Source: Candidatus Endomicrobiellum calonymphae
GTDB lineage: Bacteria; Elusimicrobiota; Endomicrobiia; Endomicrobiales; Endomicrobiaceae
Length of the DNA stretch: 64,000 nucleotides
Reading direction: 5' to 3'
Assembly (NCBI GenBank): GCA_031269945.1
Contig: JAISYK010000006.1
Coordinates: 1 to 64,000, forward strand
Shown: positions 1,976-58,645 of the stretch, in pieces
Numbering within the stretch: the first letter of the stretch is position 1
Layout of the letters: each line of letters starts with the position of its first letter
The notes under the pieces: generated by a model
Database searches by the model: none
What the model saw: the letters and a program-made list of their open reading frames with translations, nothing else
What the model was told of the DNA's origin: nothing
Made by a program: the position numbers and the translations under genes

Positions 1976-2004
1976 TTTTTAGATTTTTATGATAGGTAAT
2001 AGAA

Positions 2005-2295: not shown

Positions 2296-2472
2296 AAAAA
2301 TTAAAAAGTTTTGTAAAAAAAAAATGCTGTTCTTGGAATTTAGTATTAGGTTTAGATGTAATCACGCATGTAGGTGTGGTGTTTGTGCTGTAATTATTTG
2401 GCTATGTAAAGAATAAAGCTCAATAATACATAATATACAATATAAACTAAACATGGGGATGAGTGTAGTGTA

Positions 2473-3309: not shown

Positions 3310-3329
3310 TCGATGGAGAGAAAAAATAT

Positions 3330-3614: not shown

Positions 3615-3750
3615 AAAAAATGTGAAGACAAGTTATATATTTATGATGCTGTTTATAATAAATATGTGTTAGAAAGGGTTTTGTTTTGCGTCTACGTTTA
3701 TATATGGTATAAGCAGTATTTTCTATAGTTGAGTGAAAGAGGATGTTAAT

Positions 3751-4110
3751 ATGGAAGTAAAGGCGACGGCAAAATTTGTCAGATGTACTCCAAGAAAAGT
3801 AAACCAAGTTCTAGCACTTATTAGGAATAAGAAGGCGGAAAAGGCATTTGAAGTTCTTTCTTTCCTTCCAAAATCCGCTGCTGCGGTTGTCAAGAAAGTT
3901 TTAAAAAGTGCAATCGCAAATGCAGGTAAAATGAAAGATTGTTCTGATGTTAAAGTTAAGGAGGCATGGGTTGGGAGTGGTCCAATATTAAAAAGAATGA
4001 TGCCTGGATCGAGAGGGAAAAGCAGACCTATTAAAAGAAGAACTTCACATCTTACGATAGTTGTTTCAGATATGGATACGGTTACGAAAAAAGCAAGAAA
4101 AGCCAAATAA
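3751..4110 (+). CDS. rplV: Ribosomal protein L22
   Basis: L22 spans the exit tunnel wall. From ATG 3751 the product is 119 residues and begins MEVKATAKFVRCTPRK, the usual start; AAAGAGGA at 3736-3743 fits as ribosome binding site. An upstream in-frame TTG at 3733 would add six atypical residues and is disfavoured. The tunnel hairpin follows as MPGSRGKSRPIKRRTSHL around residues 88-105. It sits between rpsS and rpsC as expected. Confidence 0.96.
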   Translation: MEVKATAKFVRCTPRKVNQVLALIRNKKAEKAFEVLSFLPKSAAAVVKKVLKSAIANAGKMKDCSDVKVKEAWVGSGPILKRMMPGSRGKSRPIKRRTSHLTIVVSDMDTVTKKARKAK

Positions 4111-4161: not shown

Positions 4162-4872
4162 ATGGGCAATAAAGTGCATCCAAAGGGTGTAAGGTTGGGT
4201 TATATTAAAGGTTGGGAATCTAGGTGGTTCGATTTGAAAGAAATGCCTAATTTTATTGAAGAAGACCGGAGAGTAAGGGTGTATCTTAAAAATAAGTTTA
4301 AGTTGGCTTTTGTATCAAGGATAGGTATTGAAAGGCAAGGGAAGCTCTTGTGTGTAAATATTCATACGGCTCGTCCGGGTGTTGTGATTGGGAAAGGTGG
4401 GCAAGGTATTGAAAACTTAAAAAAAGAACTTGAAATTATGACGGCGAAGGAAATTGTGATAAACATTATGGAAATTAAAAAGCCTGAGATTGATGCTCAA
4501 CTTGCCGCTGAAGGTATTGCATTTCAACTGGAAAGGAAGGTTGCTTTCAGAAGAGCAATGAAAAAAACTATTGAACGAGCAATGTCGGTGTCGGTAGGAG
4601 GAGCACAAGGGATAAAAGTTATGGTTTCAGGCAGAATTGGTGGAGCGGATATTGCGAGAACTGAATGGCTTAAAGAAGGAAGGATTCCTCTTCAAACTTT
4701 TAGGGCAGATATAGATTATGGTTTTGCGGAGGCTTACACGACCATGGGGCAGATAGGGGTAAAAGTTTGGATATTTAAAGAAGAGCTTTTTAAGAAGACA
4801 ACCCATAAATTGTTTAACGAAGTAAAGGTTGTTGATACTTCAAAAATAGTTGCGAAAAATATGCAAAAATGA
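4162..4872 (+). CDS. rpsC: Ribosomal protein S3
   Basis: S3 helps form the mRNA entry channel and its helicase activity. The product is 236 residues. It shows the start MGNKVHPKGVRLGYI, the KH domain motif RPGVVIGKGGQGIENL around residue 75, and the conserved GRIGGADIARTEWLKEGR near residue 160. It lies 51 bases after rplV and 95 bases before rplP, in canonical order. Confidence 0.98.
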   Translation: MGNKVHPKGVRLGYIKGWESRWFDLKEMPNFIEEDRRVRVYLKNKFKLAFVSRIGIERQGKLLCVNIHTARPGVVIGKGGQGIENLKKELEIMTAKEIVINIMEIKKPEIDAQLAAEGIAFQLERKVAFRRAMKKTIERAMSVSVGGAQGIKVMVSGRIGGADIARTEWLKEGRIPLQTFRADIDYGFAEAYTTMGQIGVKVWIFKEELFKKTTHKLFNEVKVVDTSKIVAKNMQK

Positions 4873-4967
4873 TTTGAATATTTGAATAAGGTCTAAATAA
4901 AGTTTTTGGTGCTGTGAAAAAGTGCTATACAGTGCGAAAATTATAATAGGGTGTAAGGATTTTGTGT

Positions 4968-5381
4968 ATGTTGATGCCAAAAAGGGTTAAGTATAGAAAG
5001 GTGCATAGAGGTAGAATGAGAGGTAAAGCTAAAGGTGGTGCTTGCTTGGTTTTTGGCAGGTACGGCCTTCAAGCTTTGGAACCTGTGTGGATAAACAGTA
5101 ATCAAATAGAAGCTGCTCGTATAACGCTTACGAGATTTATAAAAAAGGGTGGAAAAGTTTGGATTAGGATATTTCCTGATAAGTCGGTTACGAAAAAACC
5201 TGCCGAAACGAGAATGGGCAAGGGCAAGGGTGATCCGCAGTTTTGGGTTGCGGTTGTGAAACCTGGGAAAGTAATGTTTGAGATGGAGGGTATTTCAGAA
5301 GTAGAAGCAAAAAGGGCCCTTACGCTTGCTTCAAATAAACTTCCCATACATACAAAAATTTTAGTTAGAGCTGAAATTTGA
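4968..5381 (+). CDS. rplP: Ribosomal protein L16
   Basis: L16 organises the A-site side of the 50S subunit. The product is 137 residues from ATG 4968, giving [16 protein letters not shown], which matches the family N-terminus. A TTG at 4962 and an ATG at 4974 are alternatives, but only 4968 is both family-like and well spaced from GTAAGGA. The loop [14 protein letters not shown] is intact around residue 80. Confidence 0.96.
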
Positions 5382-5388
5382 GGAAAAA

Positions 5389-5592
5389 ATGAAAGATAAA
5401 AATCGAGATGAAATAAAAAATATGCCGTATGTTGCACTTGAAGCGAAACTTGAGGATCTTCAGGACAGAATTTTTAAATTAAAATTTCGTCACTCTGTAA
5501 CTCCTTTGAAAAATCCTCTCGAGATAAGAAAGGTGAGAAGAAATATAGCGAGAGTAAAAACGTTTATCACTCATGAAAGGAAATCTAAATGA
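5389..5592 (+). CDS. rpmC: Ribosomal protein L29
   Basis: L29 is a small helical protein at the tunnel exit. The product is 67 residues, begins seven bases after rplP, and has the conserved C-terminal NPLEIRKVRRNIARVKT. GAGGAAAA precedes the start. Its end overlaps the open frame upstream of rpsQ, but the true rpsQ start lies 34 bases downstream. Confidence 0.94.
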   Translation: MKDKNRDEIKNMPYVALEAKLEDLQDRIFKLKFRHSVTPLKNPLEIRKVRRNIARVKTFITHERKSK

Positions 5593-5626
5593 GACAAAAA
5601 AAATAATAGGGAATGGAAAAAGCATA

Positions 5627-5911
5627 ATGTCAGAACGTAATAAACGTAAGCGGCGTATAGGTGTGGTTGTAAATGATAAAAATGAAAAAACTAGGAAAGT
5701 GTCTGTTAAAAGAACGTATCGCCATCCTCTATATGGCCGCGTAATTCGCAGTAAGAGTAAAATTGCCGTACATGATGAAAAAAATATGTCTCGTGTTGGT
5801 GATATGGTGGAAATAATAGAATCTAGGCCACTCTCAAAAACTAAAAGATGGGTTTTAATTAAGATTTTAAGTCGAAATATAAATGTTGAAAGTATAAAAC
5901 AAAGTTTATAA
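5627..5911 (+). CDS. rpsQ: Ribosomal protein S17
   Basis: S17 is a primary 16S-binding protein with an OB fold. From ATG 5627 the product is 94 residues, beginning [15 protein letters not shown]. It has the conserved [18 protein letters not shown] near residue 24 and the tail segment PLSKTKRW. The reading frame is open back to 5573, but that extension overlaps rpmC and is not family-like. The ribosome binding site is weak (AATAGGGAATGG), suggesting partial coupling to rpmC. Confidence 0.94.
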
Positions 5912-5933
5912 TTATGTAATAAGGATAGGTTCG

Positions 5934-6302
5934 ATGATTCAAGAAAGAACTATTTTAAACGTTGCAGATAATTCTGGTGCGAAAAAAATTCGTTGTTTTA
6001 GAGTTACGAAAGGGTTTAAGCGTCGCTATGCAAGCATAGGCGACGTAATACACGCATCAGTGCAAAGCACATTACCTCATGCGAATATTAAGAAAGGGGA
6101 TGTTGTCAAAGCTGTAGTAGTTCGTACGGTCAAAGAGATCCGCCGAGCAGATGGAACTTATATTAAGTTTGATGATAATGCGGCTGTTATTATAAATGAT
6201 GAAGGCGAGCCTAAAGGGACTCGCATTTTGGGGCCGATTGCAAAAGAACTTAGAGAAAGAAATTATCTTAAAATAATTTCTTTGGCACCTGAGGTAATAT
6301 AG
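5934..6302 (+). CDS. rplN: Ribosomal protein L14
   Basis: L14 contacts the 30S subunit at an intersubunit bridge and binds the silencing factor RsfS. The product is 122 residues, exactly the usual length. It starts [18 protein letters not shown] and has GDVIHASVQ and [12 protein letters not shown] in the middle and [16 protein letters not shown] near the end. AAGGATAGG sits before ATG 5934. Confidence 0.97.
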
Positions 6303-6387
6303 ACTGAGATAGATTGCAAATAAACGTGTTTTAGCAAATGTTTAAAAAGTTAACTCAGGCAAAAAATTGAAATGGGAAATACGAAGA

Positions 6388-6699
6388 ATGCTTAATATTA
6401 AAAAAAAGGACAAGGTGTTAGTTTTATCTGGAAAAGACAAAGGGAAAAAAGGTGAAATTATTAAAGTTTTTCCTGATAAGTGTAAAGTTATTGTTGAAAA
6501 AGTTAATTTTGTAAAAAGGCATACAAAGTCTACTAAGAAAAATTCTGGAGGAATTTATGATAAGGAAGCTCCTATAGGTATGAGTAAAGTTATGCTTGTG
6601 TGTCCAAAATGTGATCGTGCTTCAAGACCTAAGTTTGATAAGCTGTCGGATGGGAAGAAGGTCAGAGTGTGTCGTAGATGCAGTGAAATTATAGTCTAA
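6388..6699 (+). CDS. rplX: Ribosomal protein L24
   Basis: L24 starts 50S assembly. From ATG 6388 the product is 103 residues, beginning MLNIKKKDKVLVLSGKDKGK, the KOW motif that defines the family. The C-terminal half keeps CPKCDR and CRRC, two cysteine pairs that may bind zinc. The upstream extension to 6367 is not family-like. rplE follows after 123 bases. Confidence 0.95.
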   Translation: MLNIKKKDKVLVLSGKDKGKKGEIIKVFPDKCKVIVEKVNFVKRHTKSTKKNSGGIYDKEAPIGMSKVMLVCPKCDRASRPKFDKLSDGKKVRVCRRCSEIIV

Positions 6700-6822
6700 A
6701 AGAGAAAGTGTAGAGAGAAATGGAAAGGTTTTGAGTTATATATAAATTAATTGCTAAGTGGTGAATTTATAATAGGTTTTGTGTTTATCATTTGCATGTT
6801 CTCAAATAAAAGGAAAAAGCCA

Positions 6823-7383
6823 ATGAGGCAGTCTCGTTTAAAAGAGTTTTACCAAAAAAGTGTGGTGATTAAATTGAAGGAGCGTTTTGGTTTTGAGAAT
6901 GTTCATCAGATTCCCAAAGTTGACAAAATTGTTGTGAATATTGGACTGGGCGAGGCAAAAGAAGACATTAAAGTTTTGGATATTTCCGCTGCGGAGCTTG
7001 CCGCTATTACTGGGCAGAAACCCGTGATTTGTCGTGCTAAGAAATCTATATCGAACTTTAAGTTGCGTCAAGGAATGCCTATAGGTGTCAAAGTAACACT
7101 TAGAAATGCTATGATGTACGAGTTTTTAGATAGGCTTATTAATATTGCAATACCTCGCATAAGAGATTTCAGGGGTATTGAGTCTGATGGTGGATTTGAT
7201 GGGAACGGAAATTTTAATTTAGGCCTTTCTGAGCAATATATTTTCCCAGAGATTGATGTTGAAAAATCAGATAAGGCCAGAGGTATGAATATTACAGTGA
7301 TAACGACGGCCGAAAAAGATGAATATGCTAAGGCGCTGCTTAGCTTTCTTGGTATGCCGTTTAGAAAAAGAGATAACAATTAA
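6823..7383 (+). CDS. rplE: Ribosomal protein L5
   Basis: L5 carries 5S rRNA and touches P-site tRNA. From ATG 6823 the product is 186 residues starting [24 protein letters not shown] just upstream is the ribosome binding site. The frame extends back to 6751, but the added 24 residues are hydrophobic and unlike any L5. Conserved parts are [26 protein letters not shown] and the C-terminal [19 protein letters not shown]. Confidence 0.96.
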
Positions 7384-42046: not shown

Positions 42047-43672
42047 TCATGATCTCAAATATTTTCTTAAAGTTTTGCGAACTGCACCACTTCCTGCGAG
42101 CATTTCTTTAAAGTACTTTTCTATTTTCTTACCAAGATTTGCCTTATAAAGATTCACGCTGAATATTTTTTCATTTGATAAAATCGTTGTCAATTTCCCA
42201 TCTGATGAACTTGGCTGTCCTATTTTTACATCTTTTAAAAAATTTTGCAGGTATGGCATAATAGGGTCAGGACTTAGAGTTAGAGGATTATTATTATCGT
42301 CTCTGGCCACAAGGTACCTACACCAACCGGCTATTGTTAATGGTATGAATATAAGCGAATTTATATCTAAGTCTGTACGCTTTAAATAGAGTTTGATCGT
42401 TTCTCCAAAACGTATGCCAAGTTTTTGAGATGTGTCTGTCGCGATGCGCTGTGGAGTATCTGGTATGTTGGGATTTGGAAACCGTACATTAATAACTTCG
42501 TTTATAAAGTTGGAAGGTTTTATGATACCCGGATCAACTACTACTGGCATACCTTCGTCGTAGCCTATTTTTGAGATTAATTTAACAAGATCTTTATCTT
42601 TCATTTCGTCAGAAATGGAGGTAAACCCCAATATGCAACCGAATATTGCAAGTGCAGAATGCAAAGGATTTAAACAAGTACACACCTTCATCTTTTCTAC
42701 TTTATCTACAGTACTTTTATCACAAAAATAGACTCCTGCTTTCTCAAGTGCTGGACGTCCGTTCGGAAAGACATCTTCAACAACAAGATATTGTGCTTCT
42801 TCCGTATTGACAAAAGGGGCAATAACTGAATTTTTAGACGTTTTTATGATTTGAGTGCTACCAAAACCTATTTTATCGAGTCTCTGTTTTACTTTTTGTG
42901 AAGGATATGGTGTAATTTTATCAATCATGCTCCATGGGAAAGAGACTTTTTTGTCATCTGATAGATAGTCAATAAATTCTTGATTTACATGTTTACGCAA
43001 TTTCCATTCATTTGCAACGGTTAACACTGCGACTTTTAATCTGTCGCCATTGTGAGAGAAATTGTCAGTGCTTACGAGTGCCACTGGAAGTTTGTTGTTT
43101 TTGTAGCGTTCATACATTAAAGCAGTTAATTTAGTCATGGCACTTTCTGGTCTGGCGATCCCTTCATCAAATTCTTTTAATATATCTGTCTTGAACGAGC
43201 CATTTATTGTTTTGAGATCATAACCTTTTTCTGTAATAGACAACGTTACTATCTGAAGAGAAGGTGCGGTAAATATAGTTTTTAGCCGTTTCCATGAAAT
43301 TTTATCTGCACTGTTAGCTGCTATACTCTCAGTAATGCTTGAAATTATGCGCAGTTTCATATCTCCATTTGCACACGTAATGACCTGTAAGCTGAGATTA
43401 TCATAAGGTTTATATGCTTTTTCAATGATTTCGTAATCAAAAGATTCAACGACAATTATGCCTTTGTCAGATAATTTTTGTTCAATGAGTTCTTGAGCTA
43501 TGGCACAGTGAAAGCCTTTAAAAAGATTTCCCGCTCCAAAATGAATCCAAGTGGGTGCATCAAAAGTTTTTTTGTAAATCTCTGAATCGTCGCCATCTGT
43601 GACATGAATATTATTTTTTTCGAAGCTTATTTTATTTTCTCTTACATATTTTTTACTTTTTAGCTCTAACAT
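42047..43672 (-). CDS. uxuB: Fructuronate reductase / mannitol dehydrogenase family
   Basis: The product is 541 residues, an NAD-dependent polyol dehydrogenase of the mannitol dehydrogenase family, with the N-terminal nucleotide-binding start THIHFGAGN-like (WIHFGAGNLFKGFH near residue 42) and the substrate-side VSTDNFSHNGDRLK near residue 200 and KVCTCLNPLHSALA near residue 340, where the catalytic Lys region is expected. Its placement after uxuA, with a seven-base overlap, indicates fructuronate to mannonate reduction rather than mannitol oxidation. It is the last gene of the hexuronate cluster. The role of this longer subtype is inferred from context. Confidence 0.88.
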   Translation of the reverse strand: MLELKSKKYVRENKISFEKNNIHVTDGDDSEIYKKTFDAPTWIHFGAGNLFKGFHCAIAQELIEQKLSDKGIIVVESFDYEIIEKAYKPYDNLSLQVITCANGDMKLRIISSITESIAANSADKISWKRLKTIFTAPSLQIVTLSITEKGYDLKTINGSFKTDILKEFDEGIARPESAMTKLTALMYERYKNNKLPVALVSTDNFSHNGDRLKVAVLTVANEWKLRKHVNQEFIDYLSDDKKVSFPWSMIDKITPYPSQKVKQRLDKIGFGSTQIIKTSKNSVIAPFVNTEEAQYLVVEDVFPNGRPALEKAGVYFCDKSTVDKVEKMKVCTCLNPLHSALAIFGCILGFTSISDEMKDKDLVKLISKIGYDEGMPVVVDPGIIKPSNFINEVINVRFPNPNIPDTPQRIATDTSQKLGIRFGETIKLYLKRTDLDINSLIFIPLTIAGWCRYLVARDDNNNPLTLSPDPIMPYLQNFLKDVKIGQPSSSDGKLTTILSNEKIFSVNLYKANLGKKIEKYFKEMLAGSGAVRKTLRKYLRS

Positions 43673-44772
43673 AAAAGAACACCTTTAGTTATTTTTTTAT
43701 TTTGTTTTTCTAACGTATCCCAAATGCCAAGAATATACATGATGCCTAAAGCTCTGTCATAAAGGCCGTAACCGGGACGCAATCCGGGACGGGACTCTTC
43801 GTTCCAAATATGTCTTCCATGATCTGGACGGACATAATACTTAAATCCTAATTTGTGAAATGTGTGCACGATTTCTACAATGTCTAAAGAACCGTCACAA
43901 GAACGATGCGAGCTTTCTATGAAATCGCCGTTTTCAAAACGTTTTACGTTTCTGATATGTGCAAAAAATATTTTGTCATGATAAGTTTTTATCAAATCAA
44001 CAATATCATTTTTATCCGATGAGCCTAGTGATCCTGTGCACAGCGTAAGACCGTTTGCTGGACTATCGACAAGATTTAAGTATCTTTGAATATTTTCTTT
44101 AGAAATAATGAGTCTTGGAAGGCCAAATATGCTCCATGGTGGATCATCAGGGTGAATAGCCATTTTTATACCATTTTCTTCTGCAACTGGAACAATTTCT
44201 TTTAAAAAATATTTTGCGTTTTCAAAAAGATTTTCTATAGTAAACCCTTCGTAAGCCTTAAATAATTCTCTTATTTTTGAAAGCCGTTCAGGTTCCCATC
44301 CTGGCATTGACAATAGCCCTTTTTGTTTTGACAGATTGTCCAAAAATTCATAGGGATTGAGACTGTCGATTTTTGCCTTTTCATAAAAAAGTGCTGTTGA
44401 GCCGTCAGAAAGAGCTTTATATAAATCTGTTCTTGTCCAGTCGAAAACAGGCATGAAGTTATAGCATACAACTTTTACGCCGGCTTTGCCTAAATTACGT
44501 AGAGTGTTTTTATAGTTTTCAATATACTTACTTCGCGAAGGGAGTCCAAGTTTTATATCTTCATGTACGTTTACGCTTTCAACCACTTCATTGTTAAAAC
44601 CCTCTTTAGAAAAGCAAATTTTAATTTGATTGATTTTGTCCATTTCCCAATATTCACCTGCTGGTACATCGTGAAGTGCCCACACTATTCCTTTAACTCC
44701 AGGTATCTGTTTAATGAAGTTTAATGGAATTGTGTCAAATTTTTCTCCATACCATCTGAAAGTAATTTGCAT
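43666..44772 (-). CDS. uxuA: Mannonate dehydratase
   Basis: UxuA converts D-mannonate into 2-keto-3-deoxygluconate. The product is 368 residues, with TFRWYGEKFDTIPL at the start, PGVKGIVWALHDVPAGE near residue 25, MAIHPDDPPWSIFGLPRL near residue 205 and the metal site region CTGSLGSS, FAHIRNVKRFENGDF and YVRPDHGRHIW. AGGAGG is eleven bases upstream of ATG 44772. It overlaps uxuB by seven bases; the 230-base gap to kdgK contains no gene. Confidence 0.95.
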   Translation of the reverse strand: MQITFRWYGEKFDTIPLNFIKQIPGVKGIVWALHDVPAGEYWEMDKINQIKICFSKEGFNNEVVESVNVHEDIKLGLPSRSKYIENYKNTLRNLGKAGVKVVCYNFMPVFDWTRTDLYKALSDGSTALFYEKAKIDSLNPYEFLDNLSKQKGLLSMPGWEPERLSKIRELFKAYEGFTIENLFENAKYFLKEIVPVAEENGIKMAIHPDDPPWSIFGLPRLIISKENIQRYLNLVDSPANGLTLCTGSLGSSDKNDIVDLIKTYHDKIFFAHIRNVKRFENGDFIESSHRSCDGSLDIVEIVHTFHKLGFKYYVRPDHGRHIWNEESRPGLRPGYGLYDRALGIMYILGIWDTLEKQNKKITKGVLLC

Positions 44773-45002
44773 ATAGGTGATTCCTCCTCAGAGATAGCTT
44801 TGACAGTAAATCAAAAATTACTAACTCTTCTTAAAGCAACACAGACTAAATGGCTAAGTCCAATTTAAAAACTTCAATCGCCTTAAAAACTCTTCTTTTA
44901 AGACCTGTATAAATTATTACGATCTACACGTACCTAATATGGAAACAGTTACTTATTGATAAGCAGATTTTAATTTTGAGACAAAAAAAAACTAAAACTA
45001 AA

Positions 45003-46028
45003 TTATCTTTGAACTCGTCCAGAGGCGTCTCCGCTTACCAATCTTAATACTTCATCTACTGACATTTGGTTGAAATCTCCTTCTACACTGTGTTTTAAGC
45101 AACTTGCGGCAACAGCAAATTCTAATGCATCTCTAGATGAAAAGTCGTTGATAAGGGAATAAATTAGTCCGGCTCCAAAAGAATCTCCTCCGCCTACTCT
45201 GTCAATTATATGTATTAAATATTCTTTACTGAAATAAAACTTTTCTCCATCGTAGATCATAGCAGACCAACGATTATCGTTTGCCGAAATTGAACTTCGT
45301 AAAGTTATTGCGACTTTTGAGAACTTGAATCTGTCCGTTACTACTTTAGCAACTTCTTTGTAATCTTCGTGGTTAACTTTTCCTGATGTTATATCGCTGT
45401 GCTTTGCTTTAATTCCAAATACATCGTCTATGTCTTCTTCATTCGCTATACAAACGTCAACAGATTTACAAATCTCCCCCATGATTTTTCTGGCTTTTTC
45501 TTTAGCCCAAAGCTTTTTTCTGAAATTTAAATCGCAACTTATAGTGATTCCTTTTTTTTTTGCAATTTTACAAGCTTGAAGGCAAATTTCCGCAGTTTCA
45601 TCACTTAATGCTGGAGTTATTCCTGTGAAGTGAAACCACTGAGTTTTTTCAAAAATTTTATTCCAGTCAAAATCTGCATCTTTTGCTTCTGCCATGGCGG
45701 AATATTTTCTATCGTATATTACCTTTGACGGTCTTTGACTGGCACCTTTTTCAAGAAAATATATCCCTATTCTTTCGCCACCTCTCGTAATAAATGAAGT
45801 ATCTACGCCGCGTTCCCTTAAAGAATTTACTCCGGATTGTCCTATTTCATGTTCAGGTATTCTGCTTACAAAACGCACGTTTAATCCAAAGTTTGCCAAT
45901 GACACTGCAACATTTGCTTCTCCTCCACCATACGTTGCCCCGTAATTTTTTGCCTGCAAGAAGCGATAGTATCCATCAGGGGCAAGTCTCAGCATAAGCT
46001 CTCCGAAAGTTACGACACTTTTTGACAT
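45003..46028 (-). CDS. kdgK: 2-keto-3-deoxygluconate kinase (PfkB family)
   Basis: KdgK phosphorylates KDG to KDPG with ATP. The product is 341 residues. The PfkB N-terminal signature is YGGGEANVAVSLANFG near residue 34, the substrate-side patch is GIYFLEKGASQRPSKVIYDR near residue 88, and the C-terminal anion hole and base are DRVGGGDSFGAG near residue 290. GGAGGATATCGCT precedes ATG 46028. It lies 39 bases after the transporter gene in the same direction, so co-transcription is likely. Confidence 0.94.
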   Translation of the reverse strand: MSKSVVTFGELMLRLAPDGYYRFLQAKNYGATYGGGEANVAVSLANFGLNVRFVSRIPEHEIGQSGVNSLRERGVDTSFITRGGERIGIYFLEKGASQRPSKVIYDRKYSAMAEAKDADFDWNKIFEKTQWFHFTGITPALSDETAEICLQACKIAKKKGITISCDLNFRKKLWAKEKARKIMGEICKSVDVCIANEEDIDDVFGIKAKHSDITSGKVNHEDYKEVAKVVTDRFKFSKVAITLRSSISANDNRWSAMIYDGEKFYFSKEYLIHIIDRVGGGDSFGAGLIYSLINDFSSRDALEFAVAASCLKHSVEGDFNQMSVDEVLRLVSGDASGRVQR

Positions 46029-46067
46029 AGCGATATCCTCCTTTACTTCATTATTTACACACGAAAC

Positions 46068-47459
46068 TTATAAATCTGTTATAGGGTTAAACTTAGGAAC
46101 AAGTGATTTCATTATGCGCCATGCTAAGACATAAGAAATAGAGCAAAAAGTAAACATTATAGTATATCCCGTTTCGGTATGTCCAAGAGATTGGTAATAA
46201 TCAAATAACCAACCAGCACTTTTTGAAGTGACAAGACCACCAAAGCCACCTGCCATACCGCCAATTCCAGTAACGGAAGCCACAACTTTTTTAGGAAACA
46301 TATCGGATACTGTAGTGAATATATTTGCTGACCATGCTTGATGTGCAGATGCTCCGATTCCTATTAGAATGATTGGAAACCAATAACTTACTGAGCCTAA
46401 TGGCTGTGCTAGAAGAATTACGAGAGGGAAAAGTGCTATGACGATCATAGCTGTCATACGTGCGGAGTAAATATTCATGCCCTTGTTGATAAAGTAAGTA
46501 GGGAACCATCCTCCGCTTATACTGCCTATCATAGTCATACTATACAAAACTGCCAATGGTAACATTACTTCTGTACCTGTCATGTTATACTTGGTTTTAA
46601 GGTAAGCTGGCAACCAAAATAGAAAAAACCACCAAACTCCGTCAGTCAAAAACTTGCCTATTGCAAAAGACCACGTCTGTTTGTATCCTAGAAGACGAAT
46701 CCATTTGATCCCATTTTTGCTGTTTCCCGCATCATTTTTTTTTTCAAAAGTTTGCTCTTCTCCGTCGCTTAGTATATGTTTGTATTCAATTTCTCTTATT
46801 CTTCCTTTTTCTAAGAAATTTTTAGGAGTATCGTAATAACGTTTCCAAAATATCAGCCACAAAAAACCCGCAGAACCTACTGTTATAAATGCACTTTCCC
46901 AACCGAGGTACCTCGCTAGCCATGGGACGCTAAGCGGAGCGGCAATTGCTCCTATATTAGATCCAGAGTTAAAAATACCGGTTGCAAAAGAACGTTCTTT
47001 TTTTGGGAACCATTCCGCCGTGGTCTTAATGGCCGCGGGGAAATTTCCAGCCTCTCCCACGCCAAGTATAAAGCGAGCGAATATAAAGCCTATCACGGAT
47101 ATAGGTATAAAAATCCCGAGCTTGGAAAGTAAAGGCGAAATTGTACTTCCTATCTGAATGGCAAAAGCGTGTATTATGGCACCTAATGACCATAGCACTA
47201 ACGACCATGCGTACCCTTTTTTAGTGCCTAGCCAATCTATAAATCTTCCTGCAAAAAGTAATGCTATTGCATAAGAAATTTGAAATACCGACGTGATATT
47301 AGCATAATCGGTATTAGTCCATTGAAATTGTTCAGATAAGGACGGCTGCAACAAGCTTAATACTTGTCTGTCCAAATAGTTTACGGTAGTGGCGAAGAAA
47401 AGCAATGCACATATGGTCCATCTGTAATTGCCTATCTTTTGACTATCTTTTTGTGTCAT
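46068..47459 (-). CDS. exuT: Hexuronate transporter, MFS
   Basis: The product is 463 residues with about twelve membrane segments and belongs to the anion:cation symporter branch of the major facilitator superfamily. Family features are NYLDRQVLSLLQPSLSEQF near residue 24 and GVGEAGNFPAAIKTTAEWFP near residue 133, and a middle loop of about 45 residues after segment 6. It would take up glucuronate or galacturonate with protons in the inner membrane. Substrate is inferred from its place between uxaC and kdgK. AAGGAG precedes ATG 47459. Confidence 0.9.
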   Translation of the reverse strand: MTQKDSQKIGNYRWTICALLFFATTVNYLDRQVLSLLQPSLSEQFQWTNTDYANITSVFQISYAIALLFAGRFIDWLGTKKGYAWSLVLWSLGAIIHAFAIQIGSTISPLLSKLGIFIPISVIGFIFARFILGVGEAGNFPAAIKTTAEWFPKKERSFATGIFNSGSNIGAIAAPLSVPWLARYLGWESAFITVGSAGFLWLIFWKRYYDTPKNFLEKGRIREIEYKHILSDGEEQTFEKKNDAGNSKNGIKWIRLLGYKQTWSFAIGKFLTDGVWWFFLFWLPAYLKTKYNMTGTEVMLPLAVLYSMTMIGSISGGWFPTYFINKGMNIYSARMTAMIVIALFPLVILLAQPLGSVSYWFPIILIGIGASAHQAWSANIFTTVSDMFPKKVVASVTGIGGMAGGFGGLVTSKSAGWLFDYYQSLGHTETGYTIMFTFCSISYVLAWRIMKSLVPKFNPITDL

Positions 47460-47500
47460 ATAAAACTCCTTATCTTAGTTTTTTTTGAAAAATTCTCACG

Positions 47501-48907
47501 CTAAAGATCAAATTTAAAATAACGAACGGCGTTGTCGTAAGATATATCTTCAATTATTCTAGACAATATTTTAATATCATATGGATATTCGCCGTTTTCA
47601 ACCCATTTGCCTATTAGGTTGCATAGTATGCGTCTGAAGTATTCATGTCTCGCATAGGATAAGAGGCTGCGCGAATCGGTGAGCATGCCAACAAAATTGC
47701 TTAAAATTCCTAAATTTGCAAGAGTAGTGAGTTGGTCTATCATTCCAGCTTTATGATCATTGAACCACCAAGCTGATCCTTGTTGTATTTTACTTAACAC
47801 AGGTGCAATTTGAAAACACCCCAATATTGTTCCTATTGCAGAATTGTCGTTAGGATTTAAGCTAAATATTATTGTTTTGGGAAGCTGTTCAGTTGAATTG
47901 AGAGCATTAAGTAAATCTGCAATTTGGGAACTAGAGGAAAAATTATTTATACAGTCATATCCCATATCTGGACCGAACTTTTCAAATACTAGTGTGTTAT
48001 TATTGCGTTTGCAGCCGTAATGCAGCTCCATAACTAGGTCATTCTTGTGATATTCCTGTCCGGCAAATATCATAAAAGCGGTCTTATATTTTAATTCTTC
48101 CTCTTTGCTGAGGGTATTTCCATTTAATTTTTTTTCAAATATCGTTTCTACTTCTTTCTCAGAAGCGGGAACATATGCAATATATTCCACGGCGTGATCC
48201 GTTGCACGACAACCTAAGGATATAAAAAATTCGAGTCTTTTCTTAAAGGCTTTTTTTAAGTTCGCAAAGGAAATTATATCAATACCGCTCACTTCTGAAA
48301 GTTGATCTATGTAGTCCGCGAAAATAGGTTGTTCTATGTTGAGTGCTTTATCAGGACGCCAGGCTGGAATAATTTTTACGTCAAACGCCTTATCTTTTTT
48401 AATTTTTTGGTGCCACTCAAGAGCATCTATCGGGTCGTCTGTGGTGCATATTGCTTTAACTCCTGATTGCTTTATTATTTCGCGAGCGGACATGGCCTTT
48501 TCTTTTAATTTTCTATTGCACAGTTCCCACACCTCTTGTGCAGTTTCACTGTTTAAGACGCCTTCGTAATCAAAGTACCTTCTGAGTTCAAGATGACTCC
48601 AATGGTAAAGAGGATTCCCAATTGCCCTTTCAAGAGTTTCAGCCCATTTTTGAAATTTCTCTCTGGCTGGTGCGTCACCTGTAATGTATTTTTCTTCTAT
48701 CCCGTTAGAACGCATCTGACGCCATTTATAGTGATCACCCTCTAGCCATATTTGGTTTATGTTTTCGTATTGCATATCTTGAGCTATTTCTTTAGGACTT
48801 AGGTGGCAGTGGTAATCTACTATGGGTTTTTTAGATGCGTATTTGTGGAAAAGCTCTTTTGCCGTCTCTGTGAAAAGTAAAAAATCCTCATCAAGAAATT
48901 CTTTCAT
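47501..48907 (-). CDS. uxaC: Glucuronate (uronate) isomerase
   Basis: UxaC isomerises glucuronate to fructuronate (and galacturonate to tagaturonate). The start is ATG 48907, with GAGGAGA just upstream; the TTG at 48919 is part of that binding site. The product is 468 residues, the usual size. It has the amidohydrolase-like metal motif IVDYHCHLSPKEIA near residue 27, ICTTDDPIDALEWH near residue 165 and the C-terminal GMLTDSRSLLSYARHEYFRR near residue 410. It sits between the aldolase and transporter genes. Confidence 0.95.
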   Translation of the reverse strand: MKEFLDEDFLLFTETAKELFHKYASKKPIVDYHCHLSPKEIAQDMQYENINQIWLEGDHYKWRQMRSNGIEEKYITGDAPAREKFQKWAETLERAIGNPLYHWSHLELRRYFDYEGVLNSETAQEVWELCNRKLKEKAMSAREIIKQSGVKAICTTDDPIDALEWHQKIKKDKAFDVKIIPAWRPDKALNIEQPIFADYIDQLSEVSGIDIISFANLKKAFKKRLEFFISLGCRATDHAVEYIAYVPASEKEVETIFEKKLNGNTLSKEEELKYKTAFMIFAGQEYHKNDLVMELHYGCKRNNNTLVFEKFGPDMGYDCINNFSSSSQIADLLNALNSTEQLPKTIIFSLNPNDNSAIGTILGCFQIAPVLSKIQQGSAWWFNDHKAGMIDQLTTLANLGILSNFVGMLTDSRSLLSYARHEYFRRILCNLIGKWVENGEYPYDIKILSRIIEDISYDNAVRYFKFDL

Positions 48908-48983
48908 AACTCTCCTCAACCAATTGAATTATAAACATGCTAAACAAAATAATAATGTAATAACAGAACTGCAAATATTTGTT

Positions 48984-53847: not shown

Positions 53848-55242
53848 ATGAATTATAGAGCTCCACGCGGCACTCATGACATTTTTGGAGAGGATGCTGC
53901 AAAAATGAGTTGGCTGGAACAAAAAGCAAGGGATATTTTCAAAAAACATGGATTTGAAGAAGTGAGAACTCCGATATTCGAAGAATCTTCTCTTTTTATA
54001 CGCTCAGTTGGGCAACCGACTGATATCGTAGAAAAAGAGATGTACACTTTTGAGGATAAAAAAGGTAGAAAACTTGCTTTGCGCCCCGAGGGTACCACAT
54101 CATTAGTAAGAGCTTTTATTGAACATAAGATGGACGTTTTAATGCCTGTGAGTAAATTTTTTTATGCAGGAGAAATGTTTCGCTATGAAAGACCGCAATC
54201 GGGTAGATATAGACAATTTCATCAAATAGGAGCTGAGTTTTTTTGCGTTTCATCTCCTGTTGCAGATGCTGAAATTATTTTGCTTGCATGTGATTTACTT
54301 GATTTTGTTGGTATAAATGAAATGGAAGCACGTTTTGATAATGGACATTTTTTTGAAATGAAAGTGCATTTGAATTCTTTAGGTTGTCGAAAATGTAGGC
54401 ATGTTCTTAGAGAAAAATTAGTTGAATATTTAATTTCCTTGAGTAATTTGTGTGAAAATTGTCTAAGAAGACTTGTGAAGAATCCTTTGAGAATTCTCGA
54501 TTGTAAGACAGATTCATACAAATTTACTGAAATTCCTCAGTTGTCAAGTTATTTGTGCGATGAATGTAAGCATGATTTTGACCTATTGAAGTCTTTGCTT
54601 GAGGTTGCAAAGTGTGATTATGTCGTTGATAATAAGCTTGTTAGGGGATTGGATTACTATACAAAGACTGTTTTTGAAATTTGTTGTTCTGATATTCTTT
54701 CTTCCATAAATTCATCTACTCCCATTAAAGATGCAGTAAACTGTTATGATCAGAACTTCAAACCTTATTATATTAAGGCAAGAAGGATGAATAAAGATTT
54801 AAATCGCCGAATTACACTTGCTGCAGGGGGAAGATACGATAATCTTGTTAAAGATCTGAGTGGACAAGACACTCCAGCTGTCGGATTTGCTCTTGGGTCT
54901 GAAAGAGTTTTAATTGTTGCAGAAAAATTCGGGAGTCCGGAGTTTTATAAGAGTTTTCGAAAATTTGAAAAAGTTTATGTAGCGATCGCCGATCAAGAAC
55001 TTTTTAAAGAGGCTTTTTCTTTTGCGGTAAAAATTGCGAGAAATGGGTTAAAGAATAGTAAAGATATCTCTGTTTTTGGACCCATTAATGACAAAAGTTT
55101 AACATGGCAACTAAAATTTGCAGATAAGATAGGGGCTAGAAAGACTATAATTTTTGTCAAGACTGAATTTAAAAAAGGAAAAGTTTTAGTGAAAAACATG
55201 GAAAACAAGGTACAAACAGAAGCTTCCATTTGTGAACTTTGA
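53848..55242 (+). CDS. hisS: Histidyl-tRNA synthetase
   Basis: This class II synthetase charges tRNA-His. The product is 464 residues, somewhat longer than the usual 420-430. Motif 2 is GEMFRYERPQSGRYRQFHQ (about residue 110), the histidine-specific motifs are LVRGLDYYTKTVFE (about 267) and AAGGRYDNLV (about 328), and motif 3 is PAVGFALGSERVLI (about 347). Extra residues 285-315 form an insertion (SINSSTPIKDAVNC). A cysteine-rich stretch around 175-250 (CRKCR, CENC, CDEC) could bind zinc. GAGAGATTGGG precedes ATG 53848. Confidence 0.95.
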   Translation: MNYRAPRGTHDIFGEDAAKMSWLEQKARDIFKKHGFEEVRTPIFEESSLFIRSVGQPTDIVEKEMYTFEDKKGRKLALRPEGTTSLVRAFIEHKMDVLMPVSKFFYAGEMFRYERPQSGRYRQFHQIGAEFFCVSSPVADAEIILLACDLLDFVGINEMEARFDNGHFFEMKVHLNSLGCRKCRHVLREKLVEYLISLSNLCENCLRRLVKNPLRILDCKTDSYKFTEIPQLSSYLCDECKHDFDLLKSLLEVAKCDYVVDNKLVRGLDYYTKTVFEICCSDILSSINSSTPIKDAVNCYDQNFKPYYIKARRMNKDLNRRITLAAGGRYDNLVKDLSGQDTPAVGFALGSERVLIVAEKFGSPEFYKSFRKFEKVYVAIADQELFKEAFSFAVKIARNGLKNSKDISVFGPINDKSLTWQLKFADKIGARKTIIFVKTEFKKGKVLVKNMENKVQTEASICEL

Positions 55243-55745: not shown

Positions 55746-57119
55746 TTAAACATATTTAGGTAAATATTTTTTTGCAAACCTTAATAATTCTTCATGCGAT
55801 AAGCAATTGCTTCTCCCATCTTTATAAAGCATATCTATCTCTTCTTTAATTTTCATTATAGATGGATCATTTTTGTCTAGTTTTATCTGCGAATTTCTGA
55901 GTTTTGTAAGCTGCGTATTATACCAATATGTTATTCCCGCCAGTCCGGACCTATCTGTAATGGCAACTTCTGGTGGTCTATTTAAAATAGCGTGAGTATC
56001 AAATATGCTGTATATTTCCTGCTCTTTTAACAATCCGTCAGCGTGTATTCCAGCTTTCGTTATATTGAAGTTTGATCCTACAAAAGGTTGATTTGGCGGA
56101 ATATCGTATTTGAGTTCGTCTTTGAAAAACTGTGCTATTTCGGTGATAATGGATAAATCCATTCCGTTTGTCGTTCCTCTTAAAGCGACATATTCTATGG
56201 CGAGTGCTTCAACTGGAGTGTTGCCTGTTCTTTCGCCTATGCCTAAAAGCGTTCCGTTAATTCCGGAACATCCGTAAAGCCACGCACTCGTAGAGTTTGA
56301 TAAAGCTCTATAAAAATCATTATGACCATGCCATTCAATATATTTTGACGGAACCCCAGCATGATGAGTCAACCCGTATATTATTCCGTTTATATTTCTC
56401 GGCATCGAAACTCCTGGATAACTTACGGCGAATCCTAGGGTATCGCAGGCTCTTATTTTTATTGGAATTTCAGCTTCTCGAGAAAGATTCATAAGTTCAA
56501 CTGCAAACGGAACGACGAAACCATAAAAATCTGCTCTTGTTATATCTTCAAAGTGACAGCGTGGTATGATACCTCTGGATAGAGCGTCTTTAACTATATC
56601 CAAATACATATTCATAGCTTCTTTACGCGTTTTCTTCAACTTTAAAAAGATATGATAATCTGAGCATGATGTTAAAATGCCTGTTTCTTTAAGTCTAATC
56701 TCTTTTACGAGTTTAAAATCACTTTTTGTGGCTCTTATCCACGCGGTGATCTGCGGAAAATCATAGCCCAGTTCTTTACATTTATCCACAGCTTTTCTAT
56801 CTTTTTCAGAATAGAGAAAAAACTCAGATTGCTTTATCATTCCATTTGGGCCACCAAGTTTATGAAGATATTTATACAGTTGGACTATTTGCTTTACTGT
56901 AAAAGGAGGCATCGCCTGCTGGCCATCGCGAAATGTAGTGTCTGTAATCCATATTTGATCAGGAGGATTCATGGGAACGACTTCATTATTAAAAGAAATT
57001 TTTGGAATTTCGGTATATGGGAACATTTCTCTAAAAAGATTAGGTTTACTTACATCTTGAAGCTCAAAATGATATTCCTCAGACTCAAGTCGATTTGTGC
57101 GTTTATTGAGAGTAAGCAT
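55746..57119 (-). CDS. Probable Re-citrate synthase (isopropylmalate/homocitrate synthase family)
   Basis: The protein is a DRE-TIM metallolyase of 457 residues from ATG 57119, with AGGAGA as binding site; the upstream extension to 57200 is not family-like. The signature is WITDTTFRDGQQAMPPF near residue 50, where isopropylmalate synthases usually have LRDGEQ. Further motifs are IKQSEFFLYSEKDRKAV, PRCHFEDITRADFYGFVVPF, EWHGHNDF and KAGIHADGLLKEQEIY. This pattern matches, from memory, the Re-citrate synthase of Clostridium kluyveri, which makes citrate from acetyl-CoA and oxaloacetate, and not leucine synthesis. No leuCD genes are near. It would feed glutamate synthesis in an anaerobe. Confidence 0.75.
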   Translation of the reverse strand: MLTLNKRTNRLESEEYHFELQDVSKPNLFREMFPYTEIPKISFNNEVVPMNPPDQIWITDTTFRDGQQAMPPFTVKQIVQLYKYLHKLGGPNGMIKQSEFFLYSEKDRKAVDKCKELGYDFPQITAWIRATKSDFKLVKEIRLKETGILTSCSDYHIFLKLKKTRKEAMNMYLDIVKDALSRGIIPRCHFEDITRADFYGFVVPFAVELMNLSREAEIPIKIRACDTLGFAVSYPGVSMPRNINGIIYGLTHHAGVPSKYIEWHGHNDFYRALSNSTSAWLYGCSGINGTLLGIGERTGNTPVEALAIEYVALRGTTNGMDLSIITEIAQFFKDELKYDIPPNQPFVGSNFNITKAGIHADGLLKEQEIYSIFDTHAILNRPPEVAITDRSGLAGITYWYNTQLTKLRNSQIKLDKNDPSIMKIKEEIDMLYKDGRSNCLSHEELLRFAKKYLPKYV

Positions 57120-57372: not shown

Positions 57373-58554
57373 TTATAAGATTGCCATTAATCTATCTATC
57401 CCTTTTTTTATGTTTTCAATAGAAATTGCGTAAGAGAGTCTGACATACCCCTCGGCTCCAAAAGCTGAGCCTGGAACAACTGCGACCTTAGCTACGTCTA
57501 GTAAGTGATCTGCAAATTCTATGTCTGTATTAATGATCTTATCTTTAAAAGTTTTTCCTAAAAGACCCTTAATGTTTGGAAAAACGTAAAACGTTCCTTC
57601 AGGTTTTCTACATGTTATGCCTTTTATTTCCTTAAGTCTTTTCACTATGTAATTTCTTCTTCTTTCAAATTCTTGTCTCATATATTCACTATATTCTTGA
57701 GTGCCGTTCAATGCCTCTACGGAAGCTTTAATTGATATTGACGAAGCGTTTGAAGTTGATTGACTTTGTACTTTTGCCATTGCGGAAATAATATTTTTTG
57801 GGCCCGCAGCGTAACCTATTCTCCAACCCGTCATTGAATAAGCTTTTGAAACCCCATTTACTACAATAGTAAGTTCTCTTACTTCTGGACAAACTTCTAC
57901 AATAGATGTAAATTTAAAATTGTCATATATAAGTTTTTCGTATATGTCGTCTGAAATTATAAGAATTTTATTCTTTACGCATATCCCGGCTATCGCTTTT
58001 AATTCATCAGCAGTGTAGGTAGTGCCTGTGGGATTAGAGGGAGAATTAATTATTATGGCTTTTGTTTTTGAAGTTAAAGCTTTTTTTATTTGTTCTGATG
58101 TTACTTTAAAATCAGTTTTGTCATTTGTTTGAATTATTACAGGAGTTGCACCTGCAAGTATGACCATGTCTGTATAAGAAGTCCAGAAAGGTGCTGGAAT
58201 TATGACTTCGTCTCCGTCATCAATTATTGATTGAAAAATGTTGTAAATAGAGTGTTTAGCCCCACAAGAAACTATGATTTCTTCTAGAGAATATGTAAGA
58301 TTATTGTCTCTTTTTAGTTTATTCATGATTGCATCTTTTAACTCTGAAGTACCGTCAACTGGACAATATTTTGTAAAACCTGAGTTTATTGCCGAGATGG
58401 CCGCTTCTTTTATGTTTATAGGTGTGTCGAAGTCAGGCTCTCCCACGCCGAGATTTACAACATCTACTCCTTGTTGTTCAAGAGCTTTTACTATTGCGTC
58501 TATTGCTAGCGTTGGAGATGGTTTAATTGATCGTACTCTTTTTGAAATTTTCAT
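57373..58554 (-). CDS. aspC: Aspartate aminotransferase (class I, PLP)
   Basis: The enzyme swaps amino groups between aspartate/oxaloacetate and glutamate/2-oxoglutarate. From ATG 58554, with GGAAGAGGG as binding site, the product is 393 residues. It has VNLGVGEPDFDTP near residue 33, IINSPSNPTGTTY near residue 168, the PLP Lys in VNGVSKAYSMTGWRIGYAAG near residue 230, and YVRLSYA at the end. The neighbouring citrate synthase gene on the same strand, 253 bases away, would supply the same metabolites (oxaloacetate and glutamate). Substrate is inferred within the I-gamma group. Confidence 0.88.
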   Translation of the reverse strand: MKISKRVRSIKPSPTLAIDAIVKALEQQGVDVVNLGVGEPDFDTPINIKEAAISAINSGFTKYCPVDGTSELKDAIMNKLKRDNNLTYSLEEIIVSCGAKHSIYNIFQSIIDDGDEVIIPAPFWTSYTDMVILAGATPVIIQTNDKTDFKVTSEQIKKALTSKTKAIIINSPSNPTGTTYTADELKAIAGICVKNKILIISDDIYEKLIYDNFKFTSIVEVCPEVRELTIVVNGVSKAYSMTGWRIGYAAGPKNIISAMAKVQSQSTSNASSISIKASVEALNGTQEYSEYMRQEFERRRNYIVKRLKEIKGITCRKPEGTFYVFPNIKGLLGKTFKDKIINTDIEFADHLLDVAKVAVVPGSAFGAEGYVRLSYAISIENIKKGIDRLMAIL

Positions 58555-58645
58555 CTTATTCCCTCTTCCTGCATCTTTATTTGCAAAAAAAGCAGTATCG
58601 TTATTGGGGGTAGGGTAATTGCTCATAAGCTTCGAAGTGCTCTAT

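What the first reader, a model, noticed from the sequence alone, without database searches (positions are those of the whole stretch)
55746..57119. Re-citrate synthase-like enzyme in place of a leucine gene
The sequence belongs to the isopropylmalate/homocitrate synthase family, but its DTTFRDGQQ core and long shared stretches match the oxygen-sensitive Re-citrate synthase rather than LeuA. There are no leu genes beside it, and an aspartate aminotransferase gene lies next to it. This would give an anaerobic route to citrate and glutamate without Si-citrate synthase.
Basis: partly seen in the sequence, partly recalled or inferred. Interest (0 to 1): 0.5.

Follow-up and report, generated by a model that had tools for sequence, protein, structure and literature searches.

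The report
Re-type citrate synthase in Endomicrobiellum symbiont
A reduced bacterial symbiont of the kind that lives in termite-gut protists carries an unusual, unrelated type of citrate synthase together with genes for the two further enzymes needed to make 2-oxoglutarate for glutamate; the enzyme itself was already reported in this bacterial family.

Summary
Window 55746-57119 (-) is an intact 457-aa HMGL-like protein. It is not LeuA, CimA or NifV: scores lie far below their curated cut-offs, no LeuA_dimer domain is found, and a 100/100 branch parts it from them. The genome has a separate leuA-leuC-leuD-leuB operon, no detected Si-citrate synthase, and an aconitase, an isocitrate-dehydrogenase-like gene and glutamate synthase. 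Clostridial homologs are often followed by aconitase and isocitrate dehydrogenase. The Kuenenia ortholog has the sucCD neighbours published for a gene 55.1% identical to the C. kluyveri enzyme. Best reading: a kluyveri-type Re-citrate synthase starting an oxidative half-TCA route to glutamate.

It is not new: mBio 2024 (PMC11257099) reports it for Endomicrobiaceae. What I did not find in print is a refinement. In this genus (very probably Endomicrobiellum) 4 of 41 genomes keep all three branch genes, under purifying selection; G105 has all three decayed in place on three contigs; 34 show none. That paper's text calls the branch missing in all Endomicrobiellum. Stereochemistry is untested.

The parts
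55746..57119 (-). CDS, Re-citrate-synthase-type enzyme, 457 aa, ATG start
   Evidence: ORF; HMGL-like PF00682; tree; dN/dS; fold of homocitrate/isopropylmalate synthases
56916..56942 (-). residues 60-68, DTTFRDGQQ core (R64, D65: catalytic Arg and metal-binding Asp of the family; roles recalled)
   Evidence: R64, D65, G66, Q68 invariant over 11 of 11 aligned ReCS-type, LeuA, CimA, NifV and NifV-like rows
56316..56333 (-). residues 263-268, WHGHND; H264 and H266 are the HxH metal ligands of the family (role recalled)
   Evidence: H264, H266, D268 invariant over 11 of 11 rows; EWHGHND was one of the two search motifs
56043..56051 (-). residues 357-359, GIH with H359 (catalytic His position of isopropylmalate synthases; role recalled)
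   Evidence: G357 and H359 invariant over 11 of 11 rows
57373..58626 (-). CDS, aspartate aminotransferase-like (PF00155); the likely start is the MKISKR Met at about 58554, as the ORFs of 3 of 3 same-genus orthologs begin there
   Evidence: best NCBIfam model aspartate transaminase NF004769 at 468.2 of 617 bits, under its cut-off; same-strand upstream neighbour in the same order in 9 of the 80 named loci
53848..55242 (+). flanking hisS (convergent, not part of the unit)
   Evidence: TIGR00442 over cut-off; hisS - ReCS - aat - rplU order kept in G091, G111, G182 and in G105 around the decayed copy, (the name rplU is recalled, from no call)

Best explanation
The gene encodes a Re-type (Clostridium kluyveri-type) citrate synthase, a member of the homocitrate/isopropylmalate synthase superfamily that condenses acetyl-CoA with oxaloacetate to citrate in an anaerobe lacking a Si-citrate synthase. 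Citrate then goes through aconitase and isocitrate dehydrogenase (both encoded elsewhere in the genome) to 2-oxoglutarate, which glutamate synthase converts to glutamate; the neighbouring aspartate aminotransferase links oxaloacetate/aspartate with 2-oxoglutarate/glutamate. Shown: an intact conserved gene, separation from LeuA/CimA/NifV, presence of genes for the other enzymes, co-retention and co-decay of the three branch genes. Inferred: the reaction, its Re stereochemistry and the direction of flux.
For: Scores far below every LeuA, NifV and CimA curated cut-off (best 139.1 of 517 bits). Tree of 78 rows (76 different): all 57 ReCS-type rows plus one Deinococcus row are parted from LeuA 10, CimA 2, NifV 3 and NifV-like 5 by a 100/100 branch of length 4.24. 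No PF00285 in the genome while 13 of 14 control genomes ring. Aconitase over its curated cut-off; a separate leuA-C-D-B operon, with leuA, leuC and leuB over curated cut-offs. Glutamate synthase domain PF01645 matched over positions 4-369 of 369 in G000. In the 80 named relatives an aconitase lies within 1 kb downstream on the same strand in 28 of the 70 loci with at least 1.8 kb downstream; of 64 loci with at least 4 kb downstream, 20 have aconitase and isocitrate dehydrogenase, 6 aconitase only, 4 isocitrate dehydrogenase only, 34 neither. Kuenenia and Brocadia orthologs are followed by sucC-sucD, as published for a K. stuttgartiensis gene 55.1% identical to the C. kluyveri Re-citrate synthase (PMC8027424); C. 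thermocellum's gene at 61% identity to C. kluyveri also neighbours aconitase (PMC6115520). Within the genus, ReCS, aconitase and isocitrate dehydrogenase are all intact in G000, G091, G111, G182 and all broken in G105. dN/dS 0.04-0.07.
Against: No proven Re-citrate synthase sequence was in reach, so the clade test against characterised enzymes is indirect. The ReCS-type group without the Deinococcus row has only 88/54 support, and the program warns of long branches. The isocitrate dehydrogenase candidate is below its curated cut-off (397.4 of 510 bits). The three branch genes are unlinked in this genome; all 30 named loci with an aconitase are Clostridia/Bacillota, none of the nine planctomycete loci has it, and within Elusimicrobiota aconitase adjoins the gene only in G159 and G167. 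34 of 64 long-enough relative loci have neither partner gene downstream. In K. stuttgartiensis, acetate tracing looked like a Si-type enzyme, which its authors ascribe to a side population. Three of the 59 phylum genomes with this gene also carry PF00285, and C. thermocellum is reported to have both types.
Confidence: 0.88

Rival explanations
1. It is a homocitrate synthase (NifV-like, or of an alpha-aminoadipate lysine route), using 2-oxoglutarate instead of oxaloacetate.
For: The nearest solved structures by sequence and fold are homocitrate synthases (6ktq, Z 31.5), and aconitase/isocitrate-dehydrogenase-like genes could in principle be homoaconitase and homoisocitrate dehydrogenase.
Against: TIGR02660 nifV 136 of 462.9 bits and TIGR02146 110.5 of 413.55; outside three nif-cluster NifVs and five NifV-like rows in the tree (those five are themselves under the NifV cut-off); the aconitase scores 948.2 bits on an aconitate hydratase model (cut-off 612) and stays under the homoaconitase cut-offs. 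PMC11257099 says lysine synthesis is kept in almost all endosymbionts but does not name the route in the passages I saw.
Confidence: 0.04
2. It is a second isopropylmalate or citramalate synthase.
For: Best NCBIfam hit by score is a LeuA subfamily model (139.1 bits); genes of this kind have been annotated as isopropylmalate or homocitrate synthase in several genomes (PMC12016533).
Against: A complete leu operon with its own leuA exists; no LeuA_dimer domain found, which the genome's own LeuA has; leuC/leuD-like genes near 1 of 80 relatives and leuA/leuB near 0 of 80.
Confidence: 0.03
3. It makes citrate but with Si or mixed stereochemistry, so it is a citrate synthase of this fold that is not Re-specific.
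For: Stereochemistry cannot be read from sequence; labelling in the anammox reactor looked Si-like.
Against: The characterised C. kluyveri enzyme is Re-specific according to passages of papers seen here, and the authors of the anammox study ascribe the Si signal to another organism.
Confidence: 0.04
4. The gene is a relic on its way out, with no present role, as in G105.
For: G105, in the same genus, has the gene in pieces at the same place, and 35 of 41 genomes of the genus have no match to it.
Against: Intact frame, superfamily-invariant residues present, dN/dS 0.055-0.062 against three same-genus orthologs, lower than for the neighbouring aminotransferase in the same genomes (0.081-0.101).
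Confidence: 0.01

Closest known systems
Re-citrate synthase of Clostridium kluyveri (Li et al. 2007; paper not held, known here through passages)
   Same: Same superfamily, same sequence type by the Kuenenia link (published 55.1% identity and shared sucCD neighbours); relatives are likewise annotated as isopropylmalate/homocitrate synthase; no homology to Si-citrate synthase.
Putative Re-type citrate synthase of Endomicrobiaceae (PMC11257099, mBio 2024, passages)
   Same: Same family of bacteria and very probably the same gene; that paper already places it in the clade of characterised enzymes and notes that several Endomicrobiellum lineages have it.
   Different: That paper's text says the oxidative branch to 2-oxoglutarate is missing in all Endomicrobiellum; here four genomes of the genus carry all three genes.
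LeuA 2-isopropylmalate synthase (own copy, L061:6059-7612 on contig C4)
   Same: Same HMGL-like barrel and the same invariant R/D, HxH, GIH positions.
   Different: 27.8-29% identity; LeuA_dimer and HCS_D2 domains present in LeuA and not detected in the window protein; leu operon context.
Re-citrate synthases of the Clostridioides difficile / Heliomicrobium / Thermoanaerobacter type (PMC12016533, passages)
   Same: Same reaction claimed, same superfamily.
   Different: Published to be only about 28% identical to the C. kluyveri/Syntrophus type; the window gene goes with the kluyveri type by inference.

Membership tests
Re-citrate synthase (kluyveri type) | HMGL-like barrel of the isopropylmalate/homocitrate synthase superfamily with its catalytic and metal residues | tested here: met
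   PF00682 113.8 bits; R64, D65, H264, H266, H359 invariant across 11 superfamily rows (their roles are recalled); fold match Z 31.5, rmsd 3.0, 369 residues to 6ktq
Re-citrate synthase (kluyveri type) | Separate from LeuA, CimA, NifV clades | tested here: met
   Tree of 78 rows, branch 100/100, length 4.24; a Deinococcus plasmid row stays on the ReCS side, and without it the group has 88/54
Re-citrate synthase (kluyveri type) | In one clade with biochemically proven Re-citrate synthases | tested here: inconclusive
   No proven sequence obtained; linked through L078 (Kuenenia, 63% to the window gene, sucCD neighbours) and published identity; PMC11257099 states it for the family
Re-citrate synthase (kluyveri type) | Genomic association with aconitase / isocitrate dehydrogenase | tested here: met
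   Aconitase in 30 of 80 and isocitrate dehydrogenase in 25 of 80 named relative loci, the aconitases all in Clostridia/Bacillota; co-retention and co-decay in the window's genus. Not met as physical linkage in this genome.
Re-citrate synthase (kluyveri type) | Citrate from acetyl-CoA + oxaloacetate with Re-face stereospecificity, oxygen sensitivity | not testable with these tools
   Needs enzyme assay
LeuA 2-isopropylmalate synthase | Score over curated LeuA models and LeuA_dimer domain | tested here: not met
   105.5 of 598.7 bits on TIGR00973; only HMGL-like found in Pfam, whereas the genome's LeuA has PF08502
NifV / homocitrate synthase | Score over TIGR02660 / TIGR02146 and placement with NifV | tested here: not met
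   136 of 462.9 and 110.5 of 413.55 bits; outside NifV in the tree
CimA citramalate synthase | Score over TIGR00977 and placement with CimA | tested here: not met
   75 of 450 bits; outside the two CimA rows in the tree
Si-citrate synthase | PF00285 domain | tested here: not met
   No PF00285 in the protein nor in the genome (assembly 83.44% complete)

The most novel reading that the evidence does not exclude
A subclade of the flagellate-endosymbiont genus Endomicrobiellum keeps a complete, selected Re-citrate synthase - aconitase - isocitrate dehydrogenase - glutamate synthase route, against the printed statement that the branch is missing throughout the genus. A related genome (G105) is caught losing all three branch genes while keeping glutamate synthase, giving a natural co-decay experiment that ties this Re-citrate synthase to 2-oxoglutarate supply.
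Probability: 0.75. Interest if true: 0.45.

Novelty: already known. Interest (0 to 1): 0.3.

Why it matters
Re-citrate synthases have been annotated as LeuA or homocitrate synthase in several genomes, so glutamate autonomy of anaerobes can be misread. In this symbiont lineage the three-gene branch is kept or lost nearly as a unit, which gives independent, non-biochemical support for the function and would mark where dependence on host glutamate or 2-oxoglutarate begins. It also refines a general statement about Endomicrobiellum metabolism.

Tried and rejected
Curated family models: NCBIfam and Pfam gave no match to a Re-citrate synthase model; all NCBIfam hits of the window protein are LeuA, NifV, CimA, homocitrate synthase or aldolase models below cut-off.

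Plasmid records by tblastn: 221 records, of which the 15 best were listed; the best two are Deinococcus plasmids at 37-38%. One (L163) was kept as an outlier in the tree, where its very long branch lowers support of the ReCS-type group to 88/54.

Promoter and terminator scan: counts equal to shuffles (15 found, mean 14.5; 2 found, mean 1.7), so no operon claim is made for aminotransferase and citrate synthase, which are 253 bp apart.

Uptake-for-synthesis swap: GltS is in 13 of 41 genomes of the genus (one of them broken, G169) and in none of the six with any trace of this gene. This fits replacement of synthesis by uptake, but 22 genomes have neither, and with these numbers no overlap has about 8% probability by chance (my own hypergeometric estimate, from no call), so I do not claim it.

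Exceptions to co-occurrence: G153 has aconitase on two short contigs (73-74% identity, the level seen between genera, so possibly contamination) without the other two genes; G198 (34% complete) has only a ReCS fragment at a contig end. Of the 34 genus members without any of the three, 14 are at least 90% complete. Outside the genus six of 35 genomes lack the gene (G099, G127, G141, G165, G174, G184; 63-87% complete), and five of these six still have aconitase and/or isocitrate dehydrogenase; G107, G115 and G186 have the gene but no true aconitase hit (G115 is 99% complete in 280 contigs), G139 has the gene but no true isocitrate dehydrogenase hit. 'True' means by identity: 64-100% for aconitase and 69-100% for isocitrate dehydrogenase, against about 33-39% for LeuC and LeuB.

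Fold search: no solved Re-citrate synthase among the 50 listed rows of each search; this is no evidence against one.

Print searches behind the novelty statements: 'Re-citrate synthase' (27 papers), citrate synthase + Endomicrobi (5 papers), citrate synthase/Elusimicrobi/homocitrate (82 papers, 15 listed), Endomicrobium proavitum + glutamate (10 papers), Endomicrobiellum (4 papers), TCA enzymes + endosymbiont + termite (47 papers, 12 listed). Only open-licence papers are held. I read passages of eight (PMC11257099, PMC12016533, PMC8542988, PMC11964587, PMC8027424, PMC6115520, PMC8809381, PMC12483993) and one section of PMC12483993; all others only as listings with the start of the abstract. 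No whole text, and not the supplementary Fig. S11 of PMC11257099.

Full report
What is there. The minus-strand ORF 55746-57119 encodes 457 aa. Its only Pfam match is HMGL-like. NCBIfam places it near LeuA, NifV and archaeal isopropylmalate/homocitrate synthases but always far under the curated cut-offs, the best being 139.1 of 517 bits. Sequence search in the PDB gives Sulfolobus homocitrate synthase 6ktq first (7.2e-26). An AlphaFold model (mean pLDDT 81.9, from 26 aligned sequences) matches the same structure first (Z 31.5, rmsd 3.0, 369 aligned; Foldseek E 1.3e-22). The residues shared by 11 aligned ReCS-type, LeuA, CimA, NifV and NifV-like rows include R64, D65, H264, H266 and H359. Their roles (catalytic Arg, metal ligands, catalytic His) are recalled, not from a call.

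Where it comes from. The window lies in an 808,055-base, 13-contig assembly, 83.44% complete. Named relatives from the genome-contig scan include Endomicrobia and Endomicrobiaceae of Elusimicrobiota (L063, L066, L067). L067 comes from a 64,156-base contig, the length of the contig of G163, which is in the window's family. The window's own genus has genomes of 0.2-1.4 Mb. It is the only genus of the 14 sampled in the family with the glutamate symporter GltS (13 of 41 genomes against 0 of 35), which PMC11257099 gives as exclusive to Endomicrobiellum. The genus is therefore very probably Endomicrobiellum, the endosymbionts of termite-gut flagellates.

Not LeuA, CimA or NifV. The genome has a complete leuA-leuC-leuD-leuB operon on contig C4 (ORFs), with leuA, leuC and leuB over curated cut-offs. 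Its LeuA has the LeuA_dimer domain, which was not found in the window protein. A tree of 78 rows (76 different) used the window gene, 24 of the Elusimicrobiota loci and 32 of the 80 named loci (57 ReCS-type rows), plus 10 LeuA, 2 CimA, 3 NifV from nif clusters, 5 NifV-like proteins and one Deinococcus plasmid protein. It parts the ReCS-type rows plus the Deinococcus row from everything else at 100/100 on a branch of length 4.24. The ReCS-type rows alone get 88/54, lowered by the long Deinococcus branch. Within the group the window gene is nearest its own genus, then other genera of the family, which fits vertical descent. The program warns about long branches in this tree.

Link to characterised Re-citrate synthases. 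I could not obtain a proven sequence. Two published bridges stand in. PMC8027424 reports that a K. stuttgartiensis gene 55.1% identical to the C. kluyveri Re-citrate synthase lies next to succinate-CoA ligase. The Candidatus Kuenenia hertensis ortholog (L078, 63% to the window gene) is followed by two genes with ATP-grasp_2/Ligase_CoA and CoA_binding/Ligase_CoA domains, that is sucC-sucD, and Brocadia (L070) shows ORFs with like N-termini in the same order. PMC6115520 reports a C. thermocellum gene 61% identical to the C. kluyveri enzyme and next to aconitase; that organism also has a Si-type enzyme. In many named clostridial loci here the gene is likewise followed by aconitase and isocitrate dehydrogenase. 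PMC8027424 also reports acetate labelling that looked like a Si-type enzyme and ascribes it to another organism. PMC12016533 reports two Re-citrate synthase types only about 28% identical; the bridges put the window gene with the kluyveri type.

Neighbours in relatives. In the 80 named loci (the best 80 of 560 confirmed hits: mostly Clostridia, also nine Planctomycetota, one Chloroflexi, one Firestonebacteria, four Elusimicrobiota, one unclassified), an aconitase homolog is present in 30, all Clostridia/Bacillota, an isocitrate dehydrogenase homolog in 25, an aspartate aminotransferase homolog in 9, leuC/leuD homologs in 1 (L133, opposite strand) and leuA or leuB in none. Two of the 30 aconitase hits are only 26% identical (L099, L119). 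On the same strand within 1 kb downstream, aconitase is found in 28 of the 70 loci with at least 1.8 kb downstream. Of 64 loci with at least 4 kb downstream, 20 have both, 6 aconitase only, 4 isocitrate dehydrogenase only and 34 neither. The aminotransferase, where present, is directly upstream on the same strand in all nine (9 of the 72 loci with at least 1.4 kb upstream), as in the window. In Elusimicrobiota it adjoins the gene in the four intact same-genus genomes, the decayed copy in G105, G008 and G066, and not in the other loci; aconitase adjoins it only in G159 and G167. L065 (Firestonebacteria) has isocitrate dehydrogenase and malate dehydrogenase beside the gene. These loci are related to each other, so the counts are not independent.

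The pathway in this genome. Aconitase (L062:3067-4998) scores 948.2 bits against a cut-off of 612. The isocitrate dehydrogenase candidate (L060:2270-3328) has isocitrate dehydrogenase as its best model but at 397.4 of 510 bits, and LeuB is a separate gene. The glutamate synthase domain is matched over positions 4-369 of 369 in a 505-aa frame. Si-citrate synthase PF00285 is not found, while 13 of 14 control genomes give a match. In the phylum sample 69 of 247 genomes have PF00285, none of them in the window's genus; 59 have this gene or pieces of it (hand count); three have both (G048, G163, G041).

Kept or lost nearly as a unit. Among 41 genomes of the genus, this gene is intact in G000, G091, G111 and G182, broken in G105, and a contig-end fragment in G198. 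True aconitase is intact in the same four plus G153, and broken in G105. Isocitrate dehydrogenase is intact in the same four and broken in G105. The remaining 34 genomes show none of the three; 14 of these 34 are at least 90% complete. In G105 the three genes lie on three different contigs (C2, C4, C3). The citrate synthase is in four pieces with three stops and frame changes; aconitase is alignable only to residue 352 of 644, in four pieces; isocitrate dehydrogenase is in three pieces with a gap. The flanking hisS, aat, rplU, ackA-like and ychF-like ORFs are open (the last three names are recalled), and glutamate synthase is intact there. The four retaining genomes form one clade in the tree, so this is few events, not 41 independent ones; the three-fold decay in G105 is the most telling. 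Assembly indels in G105 cannot be excluded without reads, although open neighbours make them unlikely. dN/dS (Nei-Gojobori) is 0.04-0.07 for this gene, 0.07-0.10 for aconitase, 0.08-0.14 for isocitrate dehydrogenase and 0.06-0.10 for the aminotransferase.

What is known. The four complete branches refine or contradict the last of those statements; I could not see its Fig. S11. [quoted passage not shown] I did not see the joint decay reported in the passages of the eight papers I opened; the other papers of the six searches I saw only as listings.

Verdict. Observation confirmed, interpretation supported, family and lineage already in print; modest interest, from the intact branch in this subclade and the co-decay in G105.

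Noticed in passing
L163 (Deinococcus wulumuqiensis pDrdI) 4712-7290 and L169 (Deinococcus sp. QL22 plasmid) 1756-4077: A Re-citrate-synthase-like gene (37-38% to the window gene, annotated pyruvate carboxyltransferase) lies divergent to a gene annotated citrate/2-methylcitrate synthase on two plasmids of Deinococcus (aerobes, recalled); the L163 protein branches outside the other ReCS-type rows on a very long branch.
   Followed up: partly
L057, L170, L171 (genome G105): Citrate synthase, aconitase and isocitrate dehydrogenase are all decayed in place on different contigs while flanking genes and glutamate synthase stay open.
   Followed up: yes
genome G169, C12:48655-49470: The glutamate symporter GltS is in pieces in one genome of the genus that also lacks the citrate synthase.
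   Followed up: no
genomes G171 (0.2 Mb, 66% complete), G149, G157, G129: Same-genus assemblies of 0.2-0.5 Mb with 66-80% estimated completeness; if not binning artefacts, these are far smaller than the 1.13 Mbp average printed for Endomicrobiellum.
   Followed up: no
window 42047-48919: Uronate-use cluster on the minus strand: glucuronate isomerase, MFS transporter, KDG-kinase-like, mannonate dehydratase, fructuronate-reductase-like.
   Followed up: no
window around 40000: GC skew falls from 0.19-0.34 to about 0 near 40 kb (0.17 again in the last 8 kb), near where a long run of minus-strand genes begins.
   Followed up: no
L133 4156-5569: The ReCS-type row drawn deepest apart from Deinococcus is the only one of 80 with leuC/leuD-like genes nearby, on the opposite strand; the leuC-like ORF scores best on a general aconitase/isopropylmalate dehydratase model, under its cut-off.
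   Followed up: partly
L082 7356-8024: In the clostridial locus examined, a GntR/FCD regulator lies between the citrate synthase and aconitase; several other loci have a gap of like size at this place.
   Followed up: partly
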